This document shows positions 34,626 through 45,540 of a stretch of 64,000 nt of DNA, piece by piece. How positions within the stretch are numbered: position 1 is the stretch's first letter; each line of letters starts with the position of its first letter. Position numbers and translations under genes: made by a program. The notes under the pieces were generated by a model. That model had not been told where the DNA came from, did not search any database, and worked only from the letters and a program-made list of their open reading frames with translations. Origin of the DNA: Allomeiothermus silvanus DSM 9946 (lineage in GTDB: Bacteria > Deinococcota > Deinococci > Deinococcales > Thermaceae). The stretch is from positions 888,001 to 952,000 of the forward strand of contig NC_014212.1 of NCBI RefSeq assembly GCF_000092125.1, in the 5' to 3' direction.

Positions 34626-35312
34626 ATGACCCTTACGTTCGTTTCCGCTTTCTTCGCGGGGCTTTTCTCGTTCTTGTCGCCCTGCGTTTTGCCGCTGGTG
34701 CCCACTTATTTGCTCTACTTGGGGGGTGAGCGCGGGCGGCCTCTGTTCAACGCCCTCTTCTTCGTGGGGGGGTTTGGGTTGGTGTTCTTGCTGCTGGGGC
34801 TGCCTTTCACCTTGCTGGGTAACCTGCTGGCCGAGCACAAGAGCCTGCTGGGGCAGGTCGGCGGGGTAGTGATGATTCTGTTCGGGGCCTACATGTTCAA
34901 TCTCTTCGGCCTCAAGAGCCTGTTCTCGAGAGGGGTGGGCCTGCGCTACCAGGGCGACACCGCTCGGCCCTGGGGGGCCTTCGCGCTGGGGGTGGTGCTG
35001 GCTTTGGGCTGGACGCCTTGCATCGGCCCCATCCTGGGCGGTATCCTCACCCTCACCACGGTGGAGGGGCGGGGGGCCGAACTGCTGCTTATCTACATTC
35101 TGGGGCTGGCCGTGCCGTTTTTGCTGGTGGCGTTGTTCGCTGACCGGGCAGTGGCCTTGATCCGCCGCACCGGCCACCTCACCAAATGGGTCGAGCGCGG
35201 CGCTGGGGCCTTTCTGATGCTAGTAGGGGTCTTGCTCCTCAGCGGCTACTACACCCAGCTCAACGGCTTCTTTCTCAAGATCACTCCCTCCTGGCTGCTC
35301 GAACGACTATAA
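34626..35312 (+). CDS. ccdA: cytochrome c biogenesis protein CcdA
   Basis: A 228-residue, six-helix membrane protein with the paired redox cysteines in LSPCVLPLVPTYLLY and LGWTPCIGPILGG. CcdA carries electrons from cytosolic thioredoxin across the membrane to keep apocytochrome CXXCH thiols reduced, here through the CcmG-type thioredoxin at 40118. First gene of the maturation operon. Confidence 0.92.
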   Translation: MTLTFVSAFFAGLFSFLSPCVLPLVPTYLLYLGGERGRPLFNALFFVGGFGLVFLLLGLPFTLLGNLLAEHKSLLGQVGGVVMILFGAYMFNLFGLKSLFSRGVGLRYQGDTARPWGAFALGVVLALGWTPCIGPILGGILTLTTVEGRGAELLLIYILGLAVPFLLVALFADRAVALIRRTGHLTKWVERGAGAFLMLVGVLLLSGYYTQLNGFFLKITPSWLLERL

Positions 35313-35339
35313 TTACCCCCACCCGGTATGCTATATCCC

Positions 35340-35957
35340 ATGACCCATTCCCCCCCGCAGCCCTACCTGCTCCGTGCCGAGGCTCTCTCCAAGCGTTACG
35401 GGCGGGACTGGGTGATCCGGGAACTGGATTTTAGCCTGGCCGGGGGCGAGGTAGTGGCGCTCCTGGGGCCCAACGGGGCGGGAAAGACCACCCTCTTGCG
35501 CTTGCTGGCCGGGCTGGTGCGCCCCACTGCGGGAAAGGTGAGCGCTCAGGCCAAGGTCGGCCTTCTGGCCAATCCCCCAGCCTTCTACCGCCACCTCTCG
35601 GGAGAGGAGAACCTGGCCTATGCCCTGCGCCTAGAGGACCGCAGGGTTGACCTGGGGGCGATCCACCAGCTCCTCGAACACGTTGGGTTACCCCCCAAGA
35701 AGCCGGTGCTCTCTTACTCGAGCGGAATGAAAAAGCGTCTGGCTTTGGCCCGGATGCAACTGCTTAGGCCCGAGGTCTGGCTCCTCGACGAGCCGGAGGC
35801 AGCCCTGGATGCTCAAGGCCGTGAACTCCTGGGCGAGATCGTGCACCAAGCGCGCAGGGGAGGCGGGGTGGTGATCGCCACCCATGACCGGACCTGGATC
35901 GCTGGGCTGGCCGACCGCCAGGTGGTGTTGGGGCACACCTTGAGGGGTGAGCGGTGA
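35340..35957 (+). CDS. ccmA: heme exporter ATPase CcmA
   Basis: A 205-residue ABC ATPase: GPNGAGKTTLLRLLAGL, LSYSSGMKKRLALARM (signature), WLLDEPEAALD and IATHDRTWI. Start at ATG 35340 (an in-frame ATG lies at 35328). The product powers CcmBCD-dependent release of holo-CcmE. The stop overlaps the earliest ccmB start (GTGA). Confidence 0.88.
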   Translation: MTHSPPQPYLLRAEALSKRYGRDWVIRELDFSLAGGEVVALLGPNGAGKTTLLRLLAGLVRPTAGKVSAQAKVGLLANPPAFYRHLSGEENLAYALRLEDRRVDLGAIHQLLEHVGLPPKKPVLSYSSGMKKRLALARMQLLRPEVWLLDEPEAALDAQGRELLGEIVHQARRGGGVVIATHDRTWIAGLADRQVVLGHTLRGER

Positions 35958-36679
35958 GGACGGCGGGCTCTTCCCCCAGAGCGTACTCCGGTAGGCTGGA
36001 AGGCGGGGGGGCGGTGCGGAGGATTTTTTGGTTGGCCTGGCGCGATTTGACCCTCGAGCTGCGGGGGCGGGCTGGGCTACTGGCAGTGGTGTTTTTTCTC
36101 ACGGTGATGCTGCTCATTCTGGGGCTGGCTTTTGGCCCCTATCCCCAGGACTTGCGCAAGGCCGCGCCGGGGGTGTTATGGGTAGCGCTGGCTTTTGCCG
36201 GGAGCCTGTTGGCGGGCCGGGCTTTCGGGCTCGAGGTCGAAGACAACACCCTGGATGACCTGCTGCTCACCCCGGGTGGCAAAGAGTGGATCTACTTTGG
36301 CAAGCTGCTTTTTCAGATGATCCTGCTGCTACTGGTGGGGCTCATCCTGGTGGTGTTCACCGCCGGGCTTTTTTACCTGCCGCTTTTGGCCTGGCCGGGG
36401 TTCTTGCTCACTTTGCTCTTGGGTACCCTGGGTTACGCCAGCGTCTCCACCTTCTACGCCGGCATGCTGGCCCGCTTGCGCGGACGCGAAGTGCTGCTGC
36501 CGCTGCTCTTGTTCCCTATCGTGGTTCCGGTGGTGCTTTCCTCAGTTCAGGCCACCATCGCTTTGGCCCAAGGTGTGCCCGTAGCCGAGATGCGGCACTG
36601 GTGGCAGCTTCTGTTGGTCTTCGACGTGATCTACGTTACGGTGTGTAGCCTTATCTTCCCCTGGGTGCTGGAAGGGTGA
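35954..36679 (+). CDS. ccmB: heme exporter membrane protein CcmB
   Basis: A six-helix membrane protein of 241 residues from GTG 35954, or 221 from GTG 36014 (RRIFWLAWRDLTLELRG), which fits the family length better; the earlier start is coupled to the ccmA stop. It shows the usual LEVEDNTLDDLLLTPGGKEWIYFGK block between helices 2 and 3. It forms the CcmABCD complex with CcmA. Confidence 0.85.
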   Translation: MRTAGSSPRAYSGRLEGGGAVRRIFWLAWRDLTLELRGRAGLLAVVFFLTVMLLILGLAFGPYPQDLRKAAPGVLWVALAFAGSLLAGRAFGLEVEDNTLDDLLLTPGGKEWIYFGKLLFQMILLLLVGLILVVFTAGLFYLPLLAWPGFLLTLLLGTLGYASVSTFYAGMLARLRGREVLLPLLLFPIVVPVVLSSVQATIALAQGVPVAEMRHWWQLLLVFDVIYVTVCSLIFPWVLEG

Positions 36680-36774
36680 GCGTCGTGTCCCACATCTGGC
36701 CCGGTCTCGAACGCGTATTCCTTACCAGCGCACCCATTCTCATGCCGCTTGTCGGACAATAAAAAGGAGTCAGT

Positions 36775-37473
36775 ATGCAGACCCTCGAGCGCACCCCCAC
36801 CACCCGCCTGGACGGCCTGACCCTGGCCCTCTTGGGAACCGGCACCCTGGCTTTTCTCGTTGCCCTGTACTTCGTGCTGACCTCCCCCCCTGAGGTGAGC
36901 CAGGGGTATGTCTACCGGATCGTCTTCGTTCATATTTCCACGGCCTGGGTAGGGTACCTAGCCTGCTTCGGCTGTCTGGCCTACTCGGTGGCCTACCTGG
37001 TGACCCGCAAACCCGCCCACGACCGCATGGCCGCGGTGATGGCCGAGCTGATCCTGCTGTTCATGGGCCTGACCCTGGTGCAGGGGATGCTCTATGCCCG
37101 CCCGACCTGGGGGGTGTACTGGGAGTGGGAACCCCGCCTCACCACTACCGCTATCCTCTTTGCAGTCTACGTGGGCTACTTCGTGCTGCGCGCGGCCATC
37201 GAAGACCCCGAGCTCAGGGCCAAGGCCGCCGCTGCGGTGGGCATCCTGGGGGTCATCAACGTGCCCATCAGCTACATGTCGGTGATCTGGTGGCGCAGCC
37301 TACACCAGGTGCAAAGCTTCAACCTCACCACCGGCAAAAGCCAGTTCGACCCGGCCATGCTCCCCGCGCTCTTGGTCACCCTGACGGCCCTTACCCTGCT
37401 CTTCTTCGGCTTTGCTCGCTTCAAGGGGTATCTGGCCGCCCAGAGCGCCCATAAGGAGGTCATGGATGGATAA
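36775..37473 (+). CDS. ccmC: heme lyase complex protein CcmC
   Basis: A 232-residue, six-helix protein of the heme-handling family. The tryptophan-rich periplasmic loop reads TWGVYWEWEPRLTTT, so the usual Asp of the WWD motif is Glu. His in FVHISTAW and SLHQVQSF fit the axial heme ligands. It loads heme on CcmE. AAAAGGAG precedes ATG 36775. Confidence 0.9.
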   Translation: MQTLERTPTTRLDGLTLALLGTGTLAFLVALYFVLTSPPEVSQGYVYRIVFVHISTAWVGYLACFGCLAYSVAYLVTRKPAHDRMAAVMAELILLFMGLTLVQGMLYARPTWGVYWEWEPRLTTTAILFAVYVGYFVLRAAIEDPELRAKAAAAVGILGVINVPISYMSVIWWRSLHQVQSFNLTTGKSQFDPAMLPALLVTLTALTLLFFGFARFKGYLAAQSAHKEVMDG

Positions 37474-37585
37474 CCCCCTGTTTAATCCGGCCAACCCCTT
37501 CGTAGTTTGGGCATACCTGCTTACTTACGGAGCGGTGCTGGGGTATCTGGGCTATTTGGTTTGGCGCTACCGGCGGAGGGAGTAA
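37466..37585 (+). CDS. ccmD: CcmD-like small membrane protein (39 aa)
   Basis: A 39-codon frame beginning inside the last codons of ccmC (ATG 37466, after AAGGAGG). It has one hydrophobic helix (FVVWAYLLTYGAVLGYLGYL) and a basic tail (WRYRRRE), the usual CcmD topology. Its place between ccmC and ccmE matches the conserved order. CcmD helps release holo-CcmE from CcmABC. Confidence 0.8.
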   Translation: MDNPLFNPANPFVVWAYLLTYGAVLGYLGYLVWRYRRRE

Positions 37586-37591
37586 AGAAGA

Positions 37592-38020
37592 ATGAGACCC
37601 AAATACATCCTCGGCATCCTGGTCGTCCTCGCGGCGCTAGCCTATATGGTCTTTGGCGGTCTGGGGCAGAACCTGGTGTACTTCATCACCCCCTCGGAGT
37701 ACTTCCAGCAGCCTGCGCGCTACCAAAACCGGCCGGTGCGGCTGGGAGGGATCGTCAAAGCCGGGACCGTTCGCTACAACAAGGACACCCTCGAGCTACG
37801 CTTCGTCCTTTCCGACGGGGTTTCTGAGGTTCTGGTGGAGGCCAGGGGTACCCCTCCTGCGCTCTTCAAGGAGCGCCAGGGGGTAGTGGTGGAGGGCCGC
37901 TTCCAGGGCCAGAGCTTCCAGGGTGATACCCTCTTGGTAAAACACTCGGAGTCCTACCAGGCTCCTAAAGCGGGCTGGACCCCCGACCAAGTGCGTAAGC
38001 TGATCGAGGAGACCCGATGA
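37592..38020 (+). CDS. ccmE: heme chaperone CcmE
   Basis: A 142-residue chaperone: N-terminal membrane anchor (ILGILVVLAALAYMVFGGL), an OB-fold domain (VRLGGIVKAGTVRY, VEGRFQGQSF), and the covalent heme-binding HxxxY motif in LLVKHSESYQAP. It carries heme from CcmC to CcmF. The gene is followed by 85 bp of heptamer-phased sequence before ccmF. Confidence 0.92.
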   Translation: MRPKYILGILVVLAALAYMVFGGLGQNLVYFITPSEYFQQPARYQNRPVRLGGIVKAGTVRYNKDTLELRFVLSDGVSEVLVEARGTPPALFKERQGVVVEGRFQGQSFQGDTLLVKHSESYQAPKAGWTPDQVRKLIEETR

Positions 38021-38023
38021 AGC

Positions 38024-38102
38024 CGTACGTTTTAGGCGATACGTCTTACGCTAAGGGATTTTTTGACGTACCCCGTGCGACGTACGGCGTGAGGCGGAGG
38101 TA
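38024..38102. repeat. heptamer-phased sequence between ccmE and ccmF
   Basis: The gap can be cut into 7-bp words that share TACG/ACG endings, for instance CCGTACG, CGATACG, TCTTACG in the first half. GACGTAC recurs exactly 14 bp apart in the second half (GACGTAC-CCCGTGC-GACGTAC). It interrupts an otherwise tightly packed operon. Confidence 0.45.
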
Positions 38103-38105
38103 CGC

Positions 38106-40121
38106 ATGACCCCCGGCCTCCTGGGTGGACTCTCGCTGGTCGCTGCGCTCCTTTTCTCGCTGATTGGGCTAGGTTTGTCTGTCTTCGCCCATTTCCAGCG
38201 GGACGGGCGCTACCTCGAGGCGGCCCGACGCACCTCGGGGCTGGCCCTGCTCGCAGCCCTGGCTGCCTTCGGGGCGCTCGAGTGGGCCTTGCTCACCGAT
38301 GATTTCAGCGTACGGTATGTGGCGGAGCACCACTCCAGCACCTCGCCCCTATGGGTCAAGCTGGTTACCCCCTGGGCGGCGCTCGAGGGCAGCATCCTGC
38401 TATGGGCTACCCTGCAAACCCTCTATACCTGGATCGTCTCCTGGCGGGTGCATACCCGTGCTCTTCCCGAGGGCAAAAACGGCCTCGACCCCTACCGCGC
38501 CCCTATCGCGCTGGGGGTGCTTTTCACCGTGCAGGTGTTCTTCTTCGCGGTGATGGTCTTCCTGGCCCATCCCTTCGATGCGGTGATCCCACCCCCCACC
38601 GAGGGGCCAGGGCCTAACCCGCTCTTGCAAAACCACTGGATGATGGCGGTGCACCCGGTGCTGATGTACTTGGGCTTCGTAGGCTTCAGCGTGCCGTTTG
38701 CCTACGCGGTAGCAGCGATGGTCACCCGGCGCTACCAGAGCTGGGTGTACGAGACCCGCTGGTGGACTATGATCGCCTGGGGCTTCCTGACCGCGGGCAA
38801 GATGGCCGGGGCCTGGTGGAGCTACGAGGTGCTGGGTTGGGGCGGGTACTGGGCTTGGGATCCGGTGGAAAACGCCTCTTTCCTGCCCTGGCTGCTCGCC
38901 ACAGCTTTCTTGCACACCTCCATGGTGCAGGAGCGGCGGGGCCTATTGCGAAGCTGGAACTTTGCGTTGGTGATCCTTACCTTTGTGGCCACTTTCTTCA
39001 TGACCTTCCTGACCCGCTCGGGGGTCATCCAATCGGTGCATGCATTTGGTGAAGGACCGGTGGGGCCGGTGTTTCTGGCCTTCTTGCTCTCGCTGGCGTT
39101 CGTCAGCTTTTACTTGCTCTCTCGAGTCTCCTCCGAGGTCAAAGACGCCGGGGAGGTGCGGCTTATAAGCCGCGAAGGGGCCTTGCTGGGTGGGGCCATC
39201 CTCTTCAGTGCGCTCACCTTCGGGGTGTTGGTGGGTACGGTCTGGCCGCTGGTGGTGGAGGCCTTGAGCGGGGCTAAGGTTTCCGTAGGGGCGCCCTTCT
39301 TCAACCAGATGGCAGCCCCCTTTGGCGTGGGCATGCTGATGCTGATGGGCATCGGGCCGGTATTGCCCTGGCGGCGGAGCAAGCCTGAGGCGGCGCGTAA
39401 CCTGCGGATCCTGCTGGCGGTGCTGTTGGTAGGTACGCTGGCGGGTCTGGTCTGGGGCTGGACCTTAGGAGTTTCGCTAGCGGTGGGGCTTTTCCTGTAT
39501 AACCTGGCGGCGGTGGGGTTGATGGTGAACCAGGGAGTACGCGAGCGGGCTCAATCCTTGGGTATCTCGGCGGCTCGAGCCTTTGCCGATCTCGCCCTCA
39601 CCCACAAGCGGCGCTTCGGCAGTCACATCGTTCACGTGGGGGTGGCGTTGGGCTGTCTGGCCATCGCTTTCAGCCAGGCCTACCGGGTAGAGGCTCAGAA
39701 GACTCTGCGCATCGGGGAGATCTGGAAAGAGGTGGGGCTCGAGGTGCGGCTGCTCGACGTGCGGCAGCTACAAGAACCCAACCGCCTAGCTACCGTCGCG
39801 GTCTTGGACGTGCGCGGCACTACCCGTCAGGGCTTGTGGGCAGAAGGGCAGTACCAGCCTCGGCTCAACGTCTACCGGGCGATGAACCAGCCGTTGCCCT
39901 CCCCTGCAGTGAAGTACACCCTGGGCAACGATTACTACTTCATCCTCCAACAGTTTGGCCAGGACGAGCGGGGGGTGTGGGCTACGGTTCGGGTGATCGT
40001 CACCCCGCTGGTGCTGTGGTTGTGGGTGGCGGGAGCGATTATGGTCATGGGGACGGTGTACATCCTGTGGCCCTCAGGCGTGCGGGCTTTGGCCAAGGCT
40101 CCGGGAGGGGCCACCGCGTGA
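38106..40121 (+). CDS. ccmF: cytochrome c heme lyase subunit CcmF
   Basis: A 671-residue protein with about fifteen membrane helices. The heme-handling loop reads WWSYEVLGWGGYWAWDPVEN (about residue 240), with periplasmic His residues around it (HHSST, LHTSM). It attaches heme to apocytochrome c together with CcmH/CcmI. The stop overlaps the ccmG start (GTGA). Confidence 0.93.
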   Translation: MTPGLLGGLSLVAALLFSLIGLGLSVFAHFQRDGRYLEAARRTSGLALLAALAAFGALEWALLTDDFSVRYVAEHHSSTSPLWVKLVTPWAALEGSILLWATLQTLYTWIVSWRVHTRALPEGKNGLDPYRAPIALGVLFTVQVFFFAVMVFLAHPFDAVIPPPTEGPGPNPLLQNHWMMAVHPVLMYLGFVGFSVPFAYAVAAMVTRRYQSWVYETRWWTMIAWGFLTAGKMAGAWWSYEVLGWGGYWAWDPVENASFLPWLLATAFLHTSMVQERRGLLRSWNFALVILTFVATFFMTFLTRSGVIQSVHAFGEGPVGPVFLAFLLSLAFVSFYLLSRVSSEVKDAGEVRLISREGALLGGAILFSALTFGVLVGTVWPLVVEALSGAKVSVGAPFFNQMAAPFGVGMLMLMGIGPVLPWRRSKPEAARNLRILLAVLLVGTLAGLVWGWTLGVSLAVGLFLYNLAAVGLMVNQGVRERAQSLGISAARAFADLALTHKRRFGSHIVHVGVALGCLAIAFSQAYRVEAQKTLRIGEIWKEVGLEVRLLDVRQLQEPNRLATVAVLDVRGTTRQGLWAEGQYQPRLNVYRAMNQPLPSPAVKYTLGNDYYFILQQFGQDERGVWATVRVIVTPLVLWLWVAGAIMVMGTVYILWPSGVRALAKAPGGATA

Positions 40122-40675
40122 AGCGTACTTTCGCGGCGCAGGCTGGGTGGCGCCTTTGGCCTTTTGCCCTGCTGGTCGTGCTAGGAGCGCTGTTGTTCTG
40201 GGGCTTGCGGCGGGGCGATCCCGGTGCGCTGCCTTCGGTGTTGGTGGGAAAACCCGCCCCGGATTTTACCCTGCCCACCTTCGCTCCGTACCGAGCGGAG
40301 TGGGGAGAGCAGATCCAGCTTTCCAAGTACTTGGGTCGAAAACCCATCCTGGTCAATCTATGGGCCAGTTGGTGCGTGCCCTGCCGTGACGAGGCCCCCC
40401 TACTCGAGGCCGCCTGGCGGCAGTACAAAGACCGCTTGCTGATCCTGGGAGTCAACGTGCAGGATACCAACCCCGGGGCTGCCTTGGGTTTCATCCAGGA
40501 ATTCGGCCTCTCCTTTCCCAGCGGCATCGACACCAACGGGCGGGTCTGGATTGACTATGGCGGTTATGGGGTGCCCGAGACCTTCTTGATCGGCAAAGAC
40601 GGCAAGGTGCTCTACCGCCACGCCGGGCCGCTGAACCCGGCCACGCTTCAGGAGTTGCTGGGGAAGGTGCTATAG
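40118..40675 (+). CDS. ccmG: thioredoxin-like CcmG/DsbE protein
   Basis: A 185-residue membrane-anchored thioredoxin (GTG 40118). It has one N-terminal helix (WPFALLVVLGALLFWGL), PDFTLPTF, the active site NLWASWCVPCRDE and cis-Pro in YGVPETFLIG. It reduces apocytochrome c thiols using electrons from CcdA. Overlaps the ccmF stop. Confidence 0.9.
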   Translation: MKRTFAAQAGWRLWPFALLVVLGALLFWGLRRGDPGALPSVLVGKPAPDFTLPTFAPYRAEWGEQIQLSKYLGRKPILVNLWASWCVPCRDEAPLLEAAWRQYKDRLLILGVNVQDTNPGAALGFIQEFGLSFPSGIDTNGRVWIDYGGYGVPETFLIGKDGKVLYRHAGPLNPATLQELLGKVL

Positions 40676-41188
40676 GTGATGGCCAAACGCCAAACGCCAA
40701 ACGCTAAACGCCGGATACCAGGTGTCATTTTGAGCGTATTGCGTATTGCGTATTGCGGCTGGCTTCTGGGACTGGCCCTCGCCCAACCTGCTGCCAACAC
40801 CCCACCGCCCGATTTTTCGCCTCAGGTCTTCGAGATCGCCCGTGAACTGCGCTGCCCGGTCTGCCAGGGGGAGTCGGTGGCGGAGTCGAACGCCGGGATC
40901 AGCCTCGAGATGCGCCGCATCATCGCCGAGCAACTGGCCCAGGGCAAAAGCGAAGAGGAGATCAAGGCCTACTTCGTGAGCCGCTACGGGCCCTGGATCC
41001 TCTACGAGCCGCCGCGCTCCGGGCTCACCCTGTGGGTCTGGCTGGCCCCGCTGGTGGGGGTGGGGTTCATCGGGGCGGGCCTATACTTCTACCTGCAATC
41101 CGCCCGGCGGCGCTCGCTCGAGGCTGGCACGGCGGAGGTTTCCGAAGAGGAACTGCGCCGCGCCGAAGCCGAACTCGACCAACCATGA
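40676..41188 (+). CDS. ccmH: CcmH/CycL-type apocytochrome reductase
   Basis: A 170-residue protein with an unusually repeat-derived N-terminus (AKRQTPNAKRR, RIAYCGW), signal-type helix, RCPVCQGESVAESNA redox motif near residue 62, the three-helix domain EMRRIIAEQLAQGKSEEEI, and a C-terminal helix (LWVWLAPLVGVGFIGAGLYF). It reduces disulfides in apocytochrome c. GTG 40676 follows the ccmG stop directly; ATG 40679 is an alternative. Confidence 0.88.
   Translation: MMAKRQTPNAKRRIPGVILSVLRIAYCGWLLGLALAQPAANTPPPDFSPQVFEIARELRCPVCQGESVAESNAGISLEMRRIIAEQLAQGKSEEEIKAYFVSRYGPWILYEPPRSGLTLWVWLAPLVGVGFIGAGLYFYLQSARRRSLEAGTAEVSEEELRRAEAELDQP
40682..40709 (+). repeat. GCCAAAC heptamer array (4 units)
   Basis: GCCAAAC at 40682-40688, 40689-40695, 40696-40702, then GCTAAAC at 40703-40709. 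It encodes the first residues of CcmH. Because the unit is 7 bp, gain or loss of one unit would shift the reading frame. Confidence 0.85.
40734..40754 (+). repeat. GCGTATT heptamer array (3 units)
   Basis: Three exact GCGTATT units at 40734-40740, 40741-40747 and 40748-40754, encoding part of the CcmH signal region. The second heptamer array within 70 bp. Confidence 0.85.
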
Positions 41189-42174
41189 CCCTGATCCTTA
41201 TCCTTGCCCTGCTGGCCTTGTTGGTTGCCATCGGCTACGCGCTGTTACCGCTATACCAGGTGGCTCAGCCTTTCCCGCCCAACCCCCGCCCCGAAGAACT
41301 CCAGGCCGAATTGCAGTTGCTCAAGGCCCAAGCTAAAGAGGCTGAAGGCGAAGAGCGTAAGCGGCTTTTGTTTCAGATCGTGCAGTTGGAACGGGAAATC
41401 GGGCCTGCCAGCGAACCGCCCCCCCCGCGCAGGCTTTCTCCGGCGCTTTGGGGTGTGGTGGCGCTGGGGGTGATCGCGCTGGGTGTGGGCCTTTACACCT
41501 TCACCCTGCCCCGGCTGCCCGGCGAGACCACGGTTACCGCCCGCTCCGAAGCGCGGGAGTTGAAGCGGCTGGAGGGCAGGGCCAAACAGACCGGGCAGAC
41601 AGGGGACTGGCTGGCTTTCGCACACAAGGCCTGGGAACTCCAGGACTTCGACCGGGCGGGCCAGGCCTACATTCGGGTGCTACAGCAAGACCCCCGCAAC
41701 GTCGAGGCGGTGCGACGGGTAGGGATACTGCTCTTTATGGGGGGCCGCCCGCAGGAAGCGGTACAGTTCCTCCAGATCGCCCTGCGCGCCGACCCCAAGG
41801 CCACCGAGGGCTGGCTTTTCCTGGGGAATGCTTACTTGCAACTCGGCCAGCGCGAACAGGCGATCCAGGCTTGGGAGAACTACCTGGCCAATGGCGGCGA
41901 GGCTCGAGAACGCGTACAAAACCTCATCGCCACCGCCAAGGCCCAACAGAGCGCTCCTGGCGCATCAGGCCAGCAGGTCTATCTGCAAAAGTGCGCTGCC
42001 TGCCACGGCTCCCAGGCTCAGGGGGGAGTCGGGCCAAAGCTAGCCGGAAACCCCATCGTCAAAGTGCCGCAGGCGGTTAGCGAGATCGTGAAGAACGGAC
42101 GGGGAACGATGCCCGCGATTTTGCTCAGCGACGAGGAGCTGAAAACACTGCTCGAGTATTTGGGGGGTTTATGA
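41185..42174 (+). CDS. CcmI-like TPR protein fused to a cytochrome c domain
   Basis: A 329-residue protein from ATG 41185, overlapping the ccmH stop. Two N-terminal membrane helices (about 1-20 and 85-105) flank a coiled-coil stretch as in CcmI. TPR units follow (about 130-250: AGQAYIRVLQQDPRN, EGWLFLGNAYLQLGQ), then a mono-heme class I cytochrome c domain with CAACH near residue 271 and the axial Met in GRGTMPAILLSDEE. CcmI normally holds apocytochrome for heme attachment; here it carries its own cytochrome domain. Confidence 0.88.
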   Translation: MTLILILALLALLVAIGYALLPLYQVAQPFPPNPRPEELQAELQLLKAQAKEAEGEERKRLLFQIVQLEREIGPASEPPPPRRLSPALWGVVALGVIALGVGLYTFTLPRLPGETTVTARSEARELKRLEGRAKQTGQTGDWLAFAHKAWELQDFDRAGQAYIRVLQQDPRNVEAVRRVGILLFMGGRPQEAVQFLQIALRADPKATEGWLFLGNAYLQLGQREQAIQAWENYLANGGEARERVQNLIATAKAQQSAPGASGQQVYLQKCAACHGSQAQGGVGPKLAGNPIVKVPQAVSEIVKNGRGTMPAILLSDEELKTLLEYLGGL

Positions 42175-42743
42175 AGCTCACCCGGCGCGACCTCATCTGG
42201 ATTCTACCCAGCACGGCTACGGCAGGGTTTTTTGGCTGGTTCGCCCTGCGGGCCTATAACATCCAGCTCAGAAAAGCCGGGGTCGGTGTGCCGCAGTGGA
42301 AAGAGGGGCCCCGGCTCGAGGTGGCTAGGGTCTCCGCTCTGGCCCACCCTTGGGACTTTCGCTACTTCAAGTATCCGGTCAAGATCGGGGCGACCACCCA
42401 GCAGCTCGAGGCGGTGCTGGTTCGGGTTCCCCAGCCGCAAGTAGGTGGACTGACCGTCGGCGAGGCCCACTTCCTGGCCCTCTCGCGCATCTGCACCCAC
42501 CAGGGTTGCACGGTGCGGTACGTGCCCGACCCCGAGGTGGGTTCCATCGCCTATAATTACCGCTCCGACCACCCCTTCCTGGGCTGCCCCTGCCACTTCG
42601 GGGCCTACGACCCCCTACAGGCCGGAAAGGCCGTGTATGGTCCCCCGCGCTACCCGTTGCCCCGGCTGCGCCTAGCAGAAGAGGCGGGGATGCTCTACGT
42701 TACCGGCTACGAAACCCCGCTCCGCCCGGCAGAGGGGGGTTGA
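42171..42743 (+). CDS. Rieske iron-sulfur protein
   Basis: A 190-residue membrane-anchored protein. A TAT-like/basic start (KLTRRDLIWI) precedes one helix. The [2Fe-2S] ligands are in CTHQGCTV and GCPCHFGAY, the Rieske box pair, with both disulfide cysteines present. It belongs to cytochrome bc complexes and passes electrons to a c-type cytochrome; coupling to the CcmI-cytochrome gene (ATGA overlap) suggests a working pair. Confidence 0.9.
   Translation: MKLTRRDLIWILPSTATAGFFGWFALRAYNIQLRKAGVGVPQWKEGPRLEVARVSALAHPWDFRYFKYPVKIGATTQQLEAVLVRVPQPQVGGLTVGEAHFLALSRICTHQGCTVRYVPDPEVGSIAYNYRSDHPFLGCPCHFGAYDPLQAGKAVYGPPRYPLPRLRLAEEAGMLYVTGYETPLRPAEGG

Positions 42744-42821: not shown

Positions 42822-45540
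<2,719 letters not shown>

What the first reader, a model, noticed from the sequence alone, without database searches (positions are those of the whole stretch)
41185..42743. CcmI fused to a cytochrome c domain and coupled to a Rieske gene
The last maturation protein carries its own CAACH heme domain with a GTMP Met ligand and overlaps a Rieske protein gene. The operon thus both builds c-type cytochromes and encodes an electron-transfer pair, perhaps a self-test substrate or part of an alternative bc-type complex. No cytochrome b gene is adjacent.
Basis: partly seen in the sequence, partly recalled or inferred. Interest (0 to 1): 0.5.

Follow-up and report, generated by a model that had tools for sequence, protein, structure and literature searches.

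The report
CcmI–cytochrome c fusion with ccm-linked Rieske
In Thermus-like bacteria the machine that attaches heme to cytochromes c carries its own cytochrome c domain and a partner iron-sulfur protein, an arrangement kept across almost all related genomes that could be read and probably wiring the machine to the respiratory chain.

Summary
One 329-aa frame (41185-42174) joins a two-helix CcmI, a TPR domain and a class I cytochrome c (CAACH, Met309). It overlaps by 4 nt a 190-aa Rieske gene (42171-42743; twin-arginine motif, one N-terminal helix) at the end of a complete ccdA-ccmABCDEFGHI operon.

It is not an error. Of 111 Deinococcota genomes held, 100 carry the fusion, 2 lack the cytochrome domain, 8 could not be read and 1 has no ccm. 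The Rieske gene follows directly in 50 of 50 genomes of the window's family and 47 of the 61 others.

The "alternative bc complex" reading fails: 35 of 39 f5 (Trueperaceae) genomes give no cytochrome b hit, and 34 of those 35 have this Rieske.

By fold the Rieske is nearest arsenite-oxidase AioB, but it scores under that family's cut-off and the window's genome has no AioA over cut-off.

Best reading: a System I accessory carrying electrons from the CcmFHI heme-ligation complex through the Rieske cluster and the CcmI-tethered heme to the cytochrome c pool. Partner and direction are inferred. The boldest reading is bc1-like bifurcation of menaquinol at CcmF, whose heme reductant a 2023 review calls unknown. 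Nine searches showed no paper describing the pair.

The parts
34626..35312 (+). ccdA-like thiol-reductant transporter (PF02683)
   Evidence: Pfam match, 49 bits
35340..35957 (+). ccmA, heme-export ABC ATPase
   Evidence: PF00005; position in operon
36014..36679 (+). ccmB (start codon not settled)
   Evidence: PF03379 129 bits
36775..37473 (+). ccmC
   Evidence: PF01578 102 bits
37466..37585 (+). ccmD-like small membrane protein, 39 aa
   Evidence: read from sequence; assigned by size and position only
37592..38020 (+). ccmE heme chaperone
   Evidence: PF03100 101 bits
38106..40121 (+). ccmF heme lyase/heme reductase; match to the solved CcmF 6ZMQ (E 3e-242); the two tryptophans of the proposed electron conduit (W214, W251 in Thermus thermophilus) are conserved, counting chain residue 18 as Met1
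   Evidence: tryptophan role from a passage of PMC10663686
40112..40675 (+). ccmG thioredoxin-like (start codon not settled)
   Evidence: TIGR00385 dsbE 111.1 bits, cut-off 123.15; PF00578 over cut-off
40676..41188 (+). ccmH
   Evidence: PF03918 111 bits
41185..42174 (+). ccmI-cytochrome c fusion, 329 aa
   Evidence: AlphaFold2 mean pLDDT 88.9
41188..41505 (+). two predicted membrane helices (residues 2-19 and 86-107) with a 66-residue loop between them
   Evidence: helices in model; layout of known CcmI proteins in a passage of PMC3884852
41530..41952 (+). TPR domain, residues 116-256
   Evidence: Pfam; model; Foldseek best hits are TPR proteins
41953..42171 (+). cytochrome c domain, residues 257-329; CAACH at 41992-42006, axial Met309 at 42109-42111
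   Evidence: C270, C273, H274, M309, P310 invariant in 34 rows
42171..42743 (+). Rieske [2Fe-2S] protein, 190 aa, twin-arginine motif (residues 5-6) and single helix (residues 5-32) at N terminus; CTHQGC at 42492-42509, CPCH at 42585-42596

Best explanation
The Rieske protein and the heme domain on CcmI form an accessory electron-transfer module of cytochrome c maturation System I in the Deinococcota that have ccm genes. Shown from sequence: a Rieske protein with a twin-arginine motif and a single N-terminal helix, and a class I cytochrome c tethered to the chaperone subunit CcmI, are encoded together at the end of the ccm operon and are kept together in almost every genome that could be read. 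Inferred: because CcmI belongs to the CcmFHI heme-ligation complex in other bacteria, the tethered heme sits beside CcmF; electrons go Rieske to CcmI heme to the soluble cytochrome c/oxidase pool, as from AioB to cytochrome c552 or from the bc1 Rieske to c1. The module thus gives CcmFHI a high-potential electron exit. What feeds the Rieske is not shown; menaquinol at CcmF is the most attractive source, and heme or thiol handling are alternatives.
For: Fusion in 100 of 111 genomes, 2 without the cytochrome domain, 8 not readable or not fetched, 1 without ccm. Rieske directly downstream on the same strand in 50 of 50 genomes of the family (hit-to-hit gap at most 266 nt, 48 within 70 nt, 16 sharing a base) and in 47 of the 61 other genomes (45 with the cytochrome domain, gap at most 236 nt, plus G108 and G109). 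Strong Rieske hit (E 1e-15 or better) in 107 of 111; ccmF in 109 of 111. The one genome at least 90% complete without ccmF (G098; no PF01578 match either) has only a weak Rieske hit at 1.2e-6, although it has three cytochrome b hits. Heme and cluster ligands invariant in the aligned rows (34 and 23); CXXCH present in all 73 fusion sequences. Mean identity of the cytochrome domain to the window 54.1%, of the TPR domain 49.9%; higher in 23 of 33 rows. Where the Rieske is not next to ccmF-I (G058; seven g14 drafts) the Rieske is kept in all 8 and the fusion in the 6 that could be read. CcmI as part of CcmFHI: passages of PMC3884852.
Against: No interaction, redox or phenotype data. Two genomes (G108, G109) lack the cytochrome domain and keep the Rieske, so the pair is separable. 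In the seven genus g14 drafts the Rieske is on a different contig from ccmF. The CcmI part is dispensable in E. coli (passage of PMC3601427), and E. coli and other proteobacteria mature cytochromes c with System I without, as far as I recall, such a module. Conserved linkage alone does not prove a function in maturation. G098 is a single draft, so the co-loss rests on one case.
Confidence: 0.5

Rival explanations
1. Ordinary respiratory carriers riding in the ccm operon: the Rieske and tethered cytochrome pass electrons in respiration, and CcmI serves only as membrane anchor.
For: Both proteins keep the ligands of working redox carriers; 110 of 111 genomes have a heme-copper oxidase hit.
Against: The cytochrome domain is on the maturation chaperone itself in 100 of 102 genomes that could be judged. 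Quinol oxidation may be covered otherwise: 38 of 39 f5 genomes have an NrfD-type hit, as alternative complex III carries (G072, 67% complete, has none; NrfD also occurs in other enzymes), and 50 of 50 genomes of the window's family have a cytochrome b.
Confidence: 0.22
2. Heme-oxidising role: the pair draws electrons from heme or holo-CcmE to keep heme ferric for loading onto CcmE.
For: Oxidised heme is held to favour the CcmE adduct (passages of PMC10663686). In G058 the Rieske gene stands right after ccmE, apart from ccmF-I.
Against: The G058 order is also what simple removal of ccmF-I would leave. The cytochrome is on CcmI, not on CcmABCDE.
Confidence: 0.13
3. Alternative bc-type complex with a cytochrome b encoded elsewhere.
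For: Rieske and cytochrome c are two of the three redox subunits of such a complex; the window's genome has one cytochrome b gene far away.
Against: 35 of 39 f5 genomes give no cytochrome b hit with two models that find the same 75 genomes, yet 34 of the 35 have this Rieske. In the window's genome the cytochrome b has its own Rieske beside it (L003).
Confidence: 0.04
4. Self-test or self-priming substrate: the fused CXXCH domain is a built-in substrate that reports or primes the machine.
For: The domain is tethered to the chaperone that binds apocytochromes; CXXCH is invariant.
Against: It does not explain the Rieske. The axial Met is also conserved, as expected of a working electron carrier. 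Two genomes dispense with the domain.
Confidence: 0.08

Closest known systems
System I CcmI (cycH), subunit of the CcmFHI heme-ligation complex
   Same: Two predicted membrane helices, TPR domain, gene directly after ccmH in a full ccm operon
   Different: Carries a C-terminal class I cytochrome c domain; among the 60 PDB sequences listed for the fusion none is named CcmI, and they are TPR proteins or cytochrome proteins
Arsenite oxidase small subunit AioB
   Same: Closest Rieske by fold: VIA Z 16.8, rmsd 2.3 over 123 residues, against 13.4 for the Thermus bc Rieske 1nyk. Many relatives share the CHFS-FDP cluster loop of AioB 8r3a, though the window has CHFGAYDP. A solved complex of arsenite oxidase with cytochrome c552 exists, 8ed4
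   Different: 44.3 bits against a cut-off of 95.65. No AioA over cut-off in the window's genome; 28 of 111 genomes overall. In G048 a different Rieske hit lies beside AioA
Rieske subunit of cytochrome bc1/b6f complexes
   Same: CTHxGC and CxCH cluster boxes, twin-arginine motif, N-terminal helix
   Different: Far under the bc1/b6f cut-offs (27.7 against 97.4 bits for TIGR01416); no partner cytochrome b in 35 of 39 f5 genomes
CcoP / cbb3-type and c6-type cytochromes c
   Same: Cytochrome domain matches PF13442; PDB hits include CcoP and cytochrome c6
   Different: Fused to CcmI rather than to an oxidase or soluble

Membership tests
System I CcmI | gene follows ccmH in a ccm operon with ccmF | tested here: met
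   same order in relatives
System I CcmI | two membrane helices then periplasmic TPR domain | tested here: met
   Pfam TPR models over cut-off; helices 2-19 and 86-107 in the AlphaFold2 model; topology itself not measured
System I CcmI | scores over the cut-off of PF23914 TPR_CcmH_CycH | tested here: not met
   32.8 bits against 42, so membership rests on operon position and architecture; 30 of 34 rows match at E 0.001 or better
System I CcmI | physically part of CcmFHI and binds apocytochrome c | not testable with these tools
   reported for other bacteria only (passages)
class I cytochrome c domain | CXXCH and distal Met ligand | tested here: met
   invariant in 34 rows; present in every locus called fused
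class I cytochrome c domain | heme covalently bound in the cell | not testable with these tools
   needs heme stain or spectra
bc1/b6f Rieske subunit | high-potential Rieske boxes CTHxGC and CxCH with extra disulfide cysteines | tested here: met
   C108, H110, C113, C139, C141, H142 invariant in 23 rows
bc1/b6f Rieske subunit | a cytochrome b partner encoded in carriers | tested here: not met
   no hit in 35 of 39 f5 genomes
bc1/b6f Rieske subunit | family score over curated cut-off | tested here: not met
   27.7 of 97.4 (TIGR01416), 38.6 of 275 (NF050121), 19.1 of 250 (NF045928) bits
arsenite oxidase AioB | score over TIGR02694 cut-off | tested here: not met
   44.3 of 95.65 bits; all 23 rows of A3, the window included, match the model at E 0.001 or better
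arsenite oxidase AioB | paired AioA molybdenum subunit | tested here: not met
   none over cut-off in G000; 28 of 111 genomes overall
arsenite oxidase AioB | fold | tested here: met
   top nine VIA rows are AioB, Z 16.6-16.8

The most novel reading that the evidence does not exclude
CcmF, Rieske and CcmI-cytochrome c work as a bc1-like electron-bifurcating unit inside the heme lyase. Menaquinol at CcmF gives one electron to the Rieske cluster, then the CcmI heme and the cytochrome c pool, and the other to the low-potential CcmF heme (-147 mV, PMC10663686), which reduces holo-CcmE heme. The downhill branch would pay for the uphill one, so the module would settle how CcmF heme is reduced in these bacteria.
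Probability: 0.12. Interest if true: 0.9.

Novelty: new variant of a known kind. Interest (0 to 1): 0.55.

Why it matters
System I is a textbook pathway, yet the reductant of CcmF heme is stated to be unknown (PMC10663686, passage). Here a bacterial group has fixed a cytochrome c onto the CcmI chaperone and kept a dedicated Rieske gene with it, including in lineages with no cytochrome b hit. That gives a genetic handle, in Thermus, whose CcmF structure is solved, on how heme ligation may be coupled to the respiratory chain. It also warns that a Rieske plus cytochrome c pair does not imply a bc complex.

Tried and rejected
Annotation or sequencing error: rejected, the junction is covered by one hit in one frame in 50 of 50 genomes of the family. 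Four drafts (G038, G042, G046, G047) show breaks in the CcmI part, not at the junction.

bc complex with distant cytochrome b: rejected as a general role. AioB: rejected as membership.

The eight genomes not judged for the fusion: G051 (58% complete, no ccm hit), G052, G069 and G070 (CcmI not on the stretches fetched), G075, G076 and G079 (contig ends), and G063, which I never fetched.

Outside Deinococcota: the genome-contig scan with the Rieske alignment found 107 relatives, of which the best 80 (79 loci) were kept; 27 were not shown. In the 4.5-10.4 kb held for these 13, no ccm gene was found by tblastn except a 25%-identity CcmF/CcmC-like hit about 4.4 kb from the Rieske in L167. Of the 66 I ran that check on 10. 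CcmI-cytochrome fusions outside the phylum were not searched, except in plasmids (no match); the genome search could not be centred on another phylum.

No genome of Deinococcaceae could be recognised among the 111 or in the loci, so that family is untested. The ResB control rings in Deinobacterium chartae, a hint of System II there, but the ResB model also cross-matches CcmF in 2 of 11 genomes.

G098: no ccmF, no PF01578, no ResB match, so how it matures cytochromes c is open.

Tree: only the quick Rieske tree was finished. Family labels need 8 changes where 5 is the least possible (shuffled mean 53.4), but five outgroup rows (L157-L160, L162) fall inside the ccm-type rows and two f5 rows (L081, L184) join other outgroups, on long branches, so monophyly is not shown. 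The RR count of that script included upstream codons and is a weak test; I rely on R5 and R6 being nearly invariant. The fold search of the whole fusion showed no cytochrome c in its 50 listed rows, mostly TPR proteins.

Papers: searches (17, 25 and 50 returned nothing) listed none that by title or abstract start describes this fusion or the ccm-linked Rieske in Deinococcota. I saw listings, plus passages of PMC10746174, PMC3884852, PMC10663686 and PMC3601427. The papers on the Thermus CcmF structure and on CcmF heme redox were not read.

Full report
What is there. The window lies in a 3.72-Mb genome of three contigs. Its size matches, from memory, Meiothermus (Allomeiothermus) silvanus; no tool printed the name. 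A complete System I operon runs from 34626 to 42743: ccdA, ccmA, ccmB, ccmC, a ccmD-like gene, ccmE, ccmF, ccmG, ccmH, ccmI-cytochrome c and Rieske. A tyrS-like gene follows on the opposite strand. The last two genes overlap by ATGA at 42171-42174.

The fusion protein. It has 329 residues and 35.9 kDa: two predicted membrane helices, a TPR domain (116-256) and a cytochrome c domain (257-329). The AlphaFold2 model has mean pLDDT 88.9 and pTM 0.58, so the domains are well predicted and their arrangement is not. C270, C273, H274, M309 and P310 are invariant in 34 rows, as expected of a heme-bearing, Met-ligated cytochrome; these 34 were chosen from 73 fusion sequences plus the window, and all 73 have CXXCH. 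Mean identity to the window is 54.1% for the cytochrome domain and 49.9% for the TPR domain.

The Rieske protein. It has 190 residues, a twin-arginine motif (R5, R6 in 90% or more of 23 rows), one N-terminal helix and CTHQGC/CPCH boxes. All 85 ccm-type sequences, the window included, have both boxes. Its nearest fold is AioB, Z 16.8 against 13.4 for the Thermus bc Rieske, but it lies under the cut-offs of all six NCBIfam families it matches. In the window's genome it is one of five Rieske hits; by eye the others are an oxygenase, a ferredoxin and two bc-like proteins, one of them beside the cytochrome b.

Distribution. 111 Deinococcota genomes are held, in five families labelled f1 to f5. The fusion is present in 100: f1 50, f2 2, f3 4, f4 11, f5 33. 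It lacks the cytochrome domain in 2 (G108, G109; G108 has the size, from memory, of Truepera radiovictrix), was not readable or not fetched in 8 (G051, G052, G063, G069, G070, G075, G076, G079), and ccm itself is missing in 1 (G098). A strong Rieske hit is in 107; there is none in G051, G063 and G076 (drafts, 58-85% complete) and a weak one in G098. ccmF is in 109, missing in G051 and G098.

Linkage. In 50 of 50 genomes of f1 the Rieske follows on the same strand within 266 nt, hit to hit. So it does in 47 of the 61 others: 45 with the cytochrome domain (within 236 nt) and the two without it. The other 14: G058, where the Rieske follows ccmE while ccmF-G-H-I-cytochrome lies at 1.98 Mb; seven g14 drafts, where Rieske and ccmF are on different contigs, with 2.9 kb (G068), 4.7 kb (G071) and 4.9 kb (G067) of Rieske-free sequence after the fusion; and six that could not be judged or lack the genes (G051, G052, G063, G075, G076, G098). 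In the two genomes without the cytochrome domain the Rieske frame is intact.

Test of the bc idea. PF13631 and PF00033 each find cytochrome b in the same 75 of 111 genomes. Only 4 of 39 f5 genomes are among them (G083, G088, G098, G099). So 35 f5 genomes show no cytochrome b, and 34 of them have the Rieske. 38 of 39 f5 genomes have an NrfD-type hit and 39 of 39 a heme-copper oxidase hit. Hence in those genomes the Rieske is unlikely to be a cytochrome bc subunit.

Mechanism. CcmI forms CcmFHI with CcmF and CcmH in other bacteria (passages of PMC3884852), though it is dispensable in E. coli (passage of PMC3601427). CcmF is held to reduce holo-CcmE heme through its own heme of -147 mV, from an unknown reductant, possibly a quinone or NADH (passages of PMC10663686). 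The two tryptophans proposed as conduit are conserved here. A Rieske cluster and a Met-ligated c-heme are normally high-potential carriers (established knowledge, not measured here), so the module more likely removes electrons than supplies CcmF heme directly. The arsenite oxidase-cytochrome c552 complex (8ed4, title) is a precedent for Rieske-to-cytochrome transfer without cytochrome b. I therefore commit to an electron-exit module at CcmFHI (0.5). Bifurcation of menaquinol at CcmF is the boldest form (0.12). Shown: gene content, fusion, ligands, conservation, independence from cytochrome b. Inferred: location beside CcmF, electron direction, quinol as source.

Limits. No experiment; Deinococcaceae not examined; the fusion was not searched outside the phylum apart from plasmids; the Rieske tree is a quick one with long outgroup branches; the co-loss case is one draft genome.

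Noticed in passing
window 44310-45470 (-): Two minus-strand ORFs (44310-44801, 44973-45470) read by eye like pieces of an IS605-type OrfB/TnpB gene split by a frame break; no family search run.
   Followed up: no
window 42822-44195 (-); L173 8396-9724; L078 10031-11362: A tyrS-like gene (named by eye, no family search) lies just downstream of the Rieske in the window and within about 2 kb of it in G066 and G058, even where ccm genes have moved away, suggesting Rieske-tyrS is an old neighbourhood.
   Followed up: partly
L084 and L085 (G108, G109): CcmI lacks the cytochrome domain and ends in an Ala/Pro/Thr-rich tail, while the Rieske follows intact: a natural domain-loss case for testing the role of the heme.
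   Followed up: partly
f5 genomes G072-G110: 35 of 39 give no cytochrome b hit but 38 of 39 have NrfD-type hits, suggesting that alternative complex III replaced the bc complex.
   Followed up: partly
G098: A 96%-complete f5 genome with no ccmF, PF01578 or ResB match but three cytochrome b hits and COX1; its cytochrome c maturation is unexplained.
   Followed up: partly
L081-L083, L086, L087, L090 and other f5 loci: In f5 genomes the CcmI fusion is about 490-560 aa, and in many a second TPR stretch lies between the usual TPR region and the cytochrome domain.
   Followed up: no
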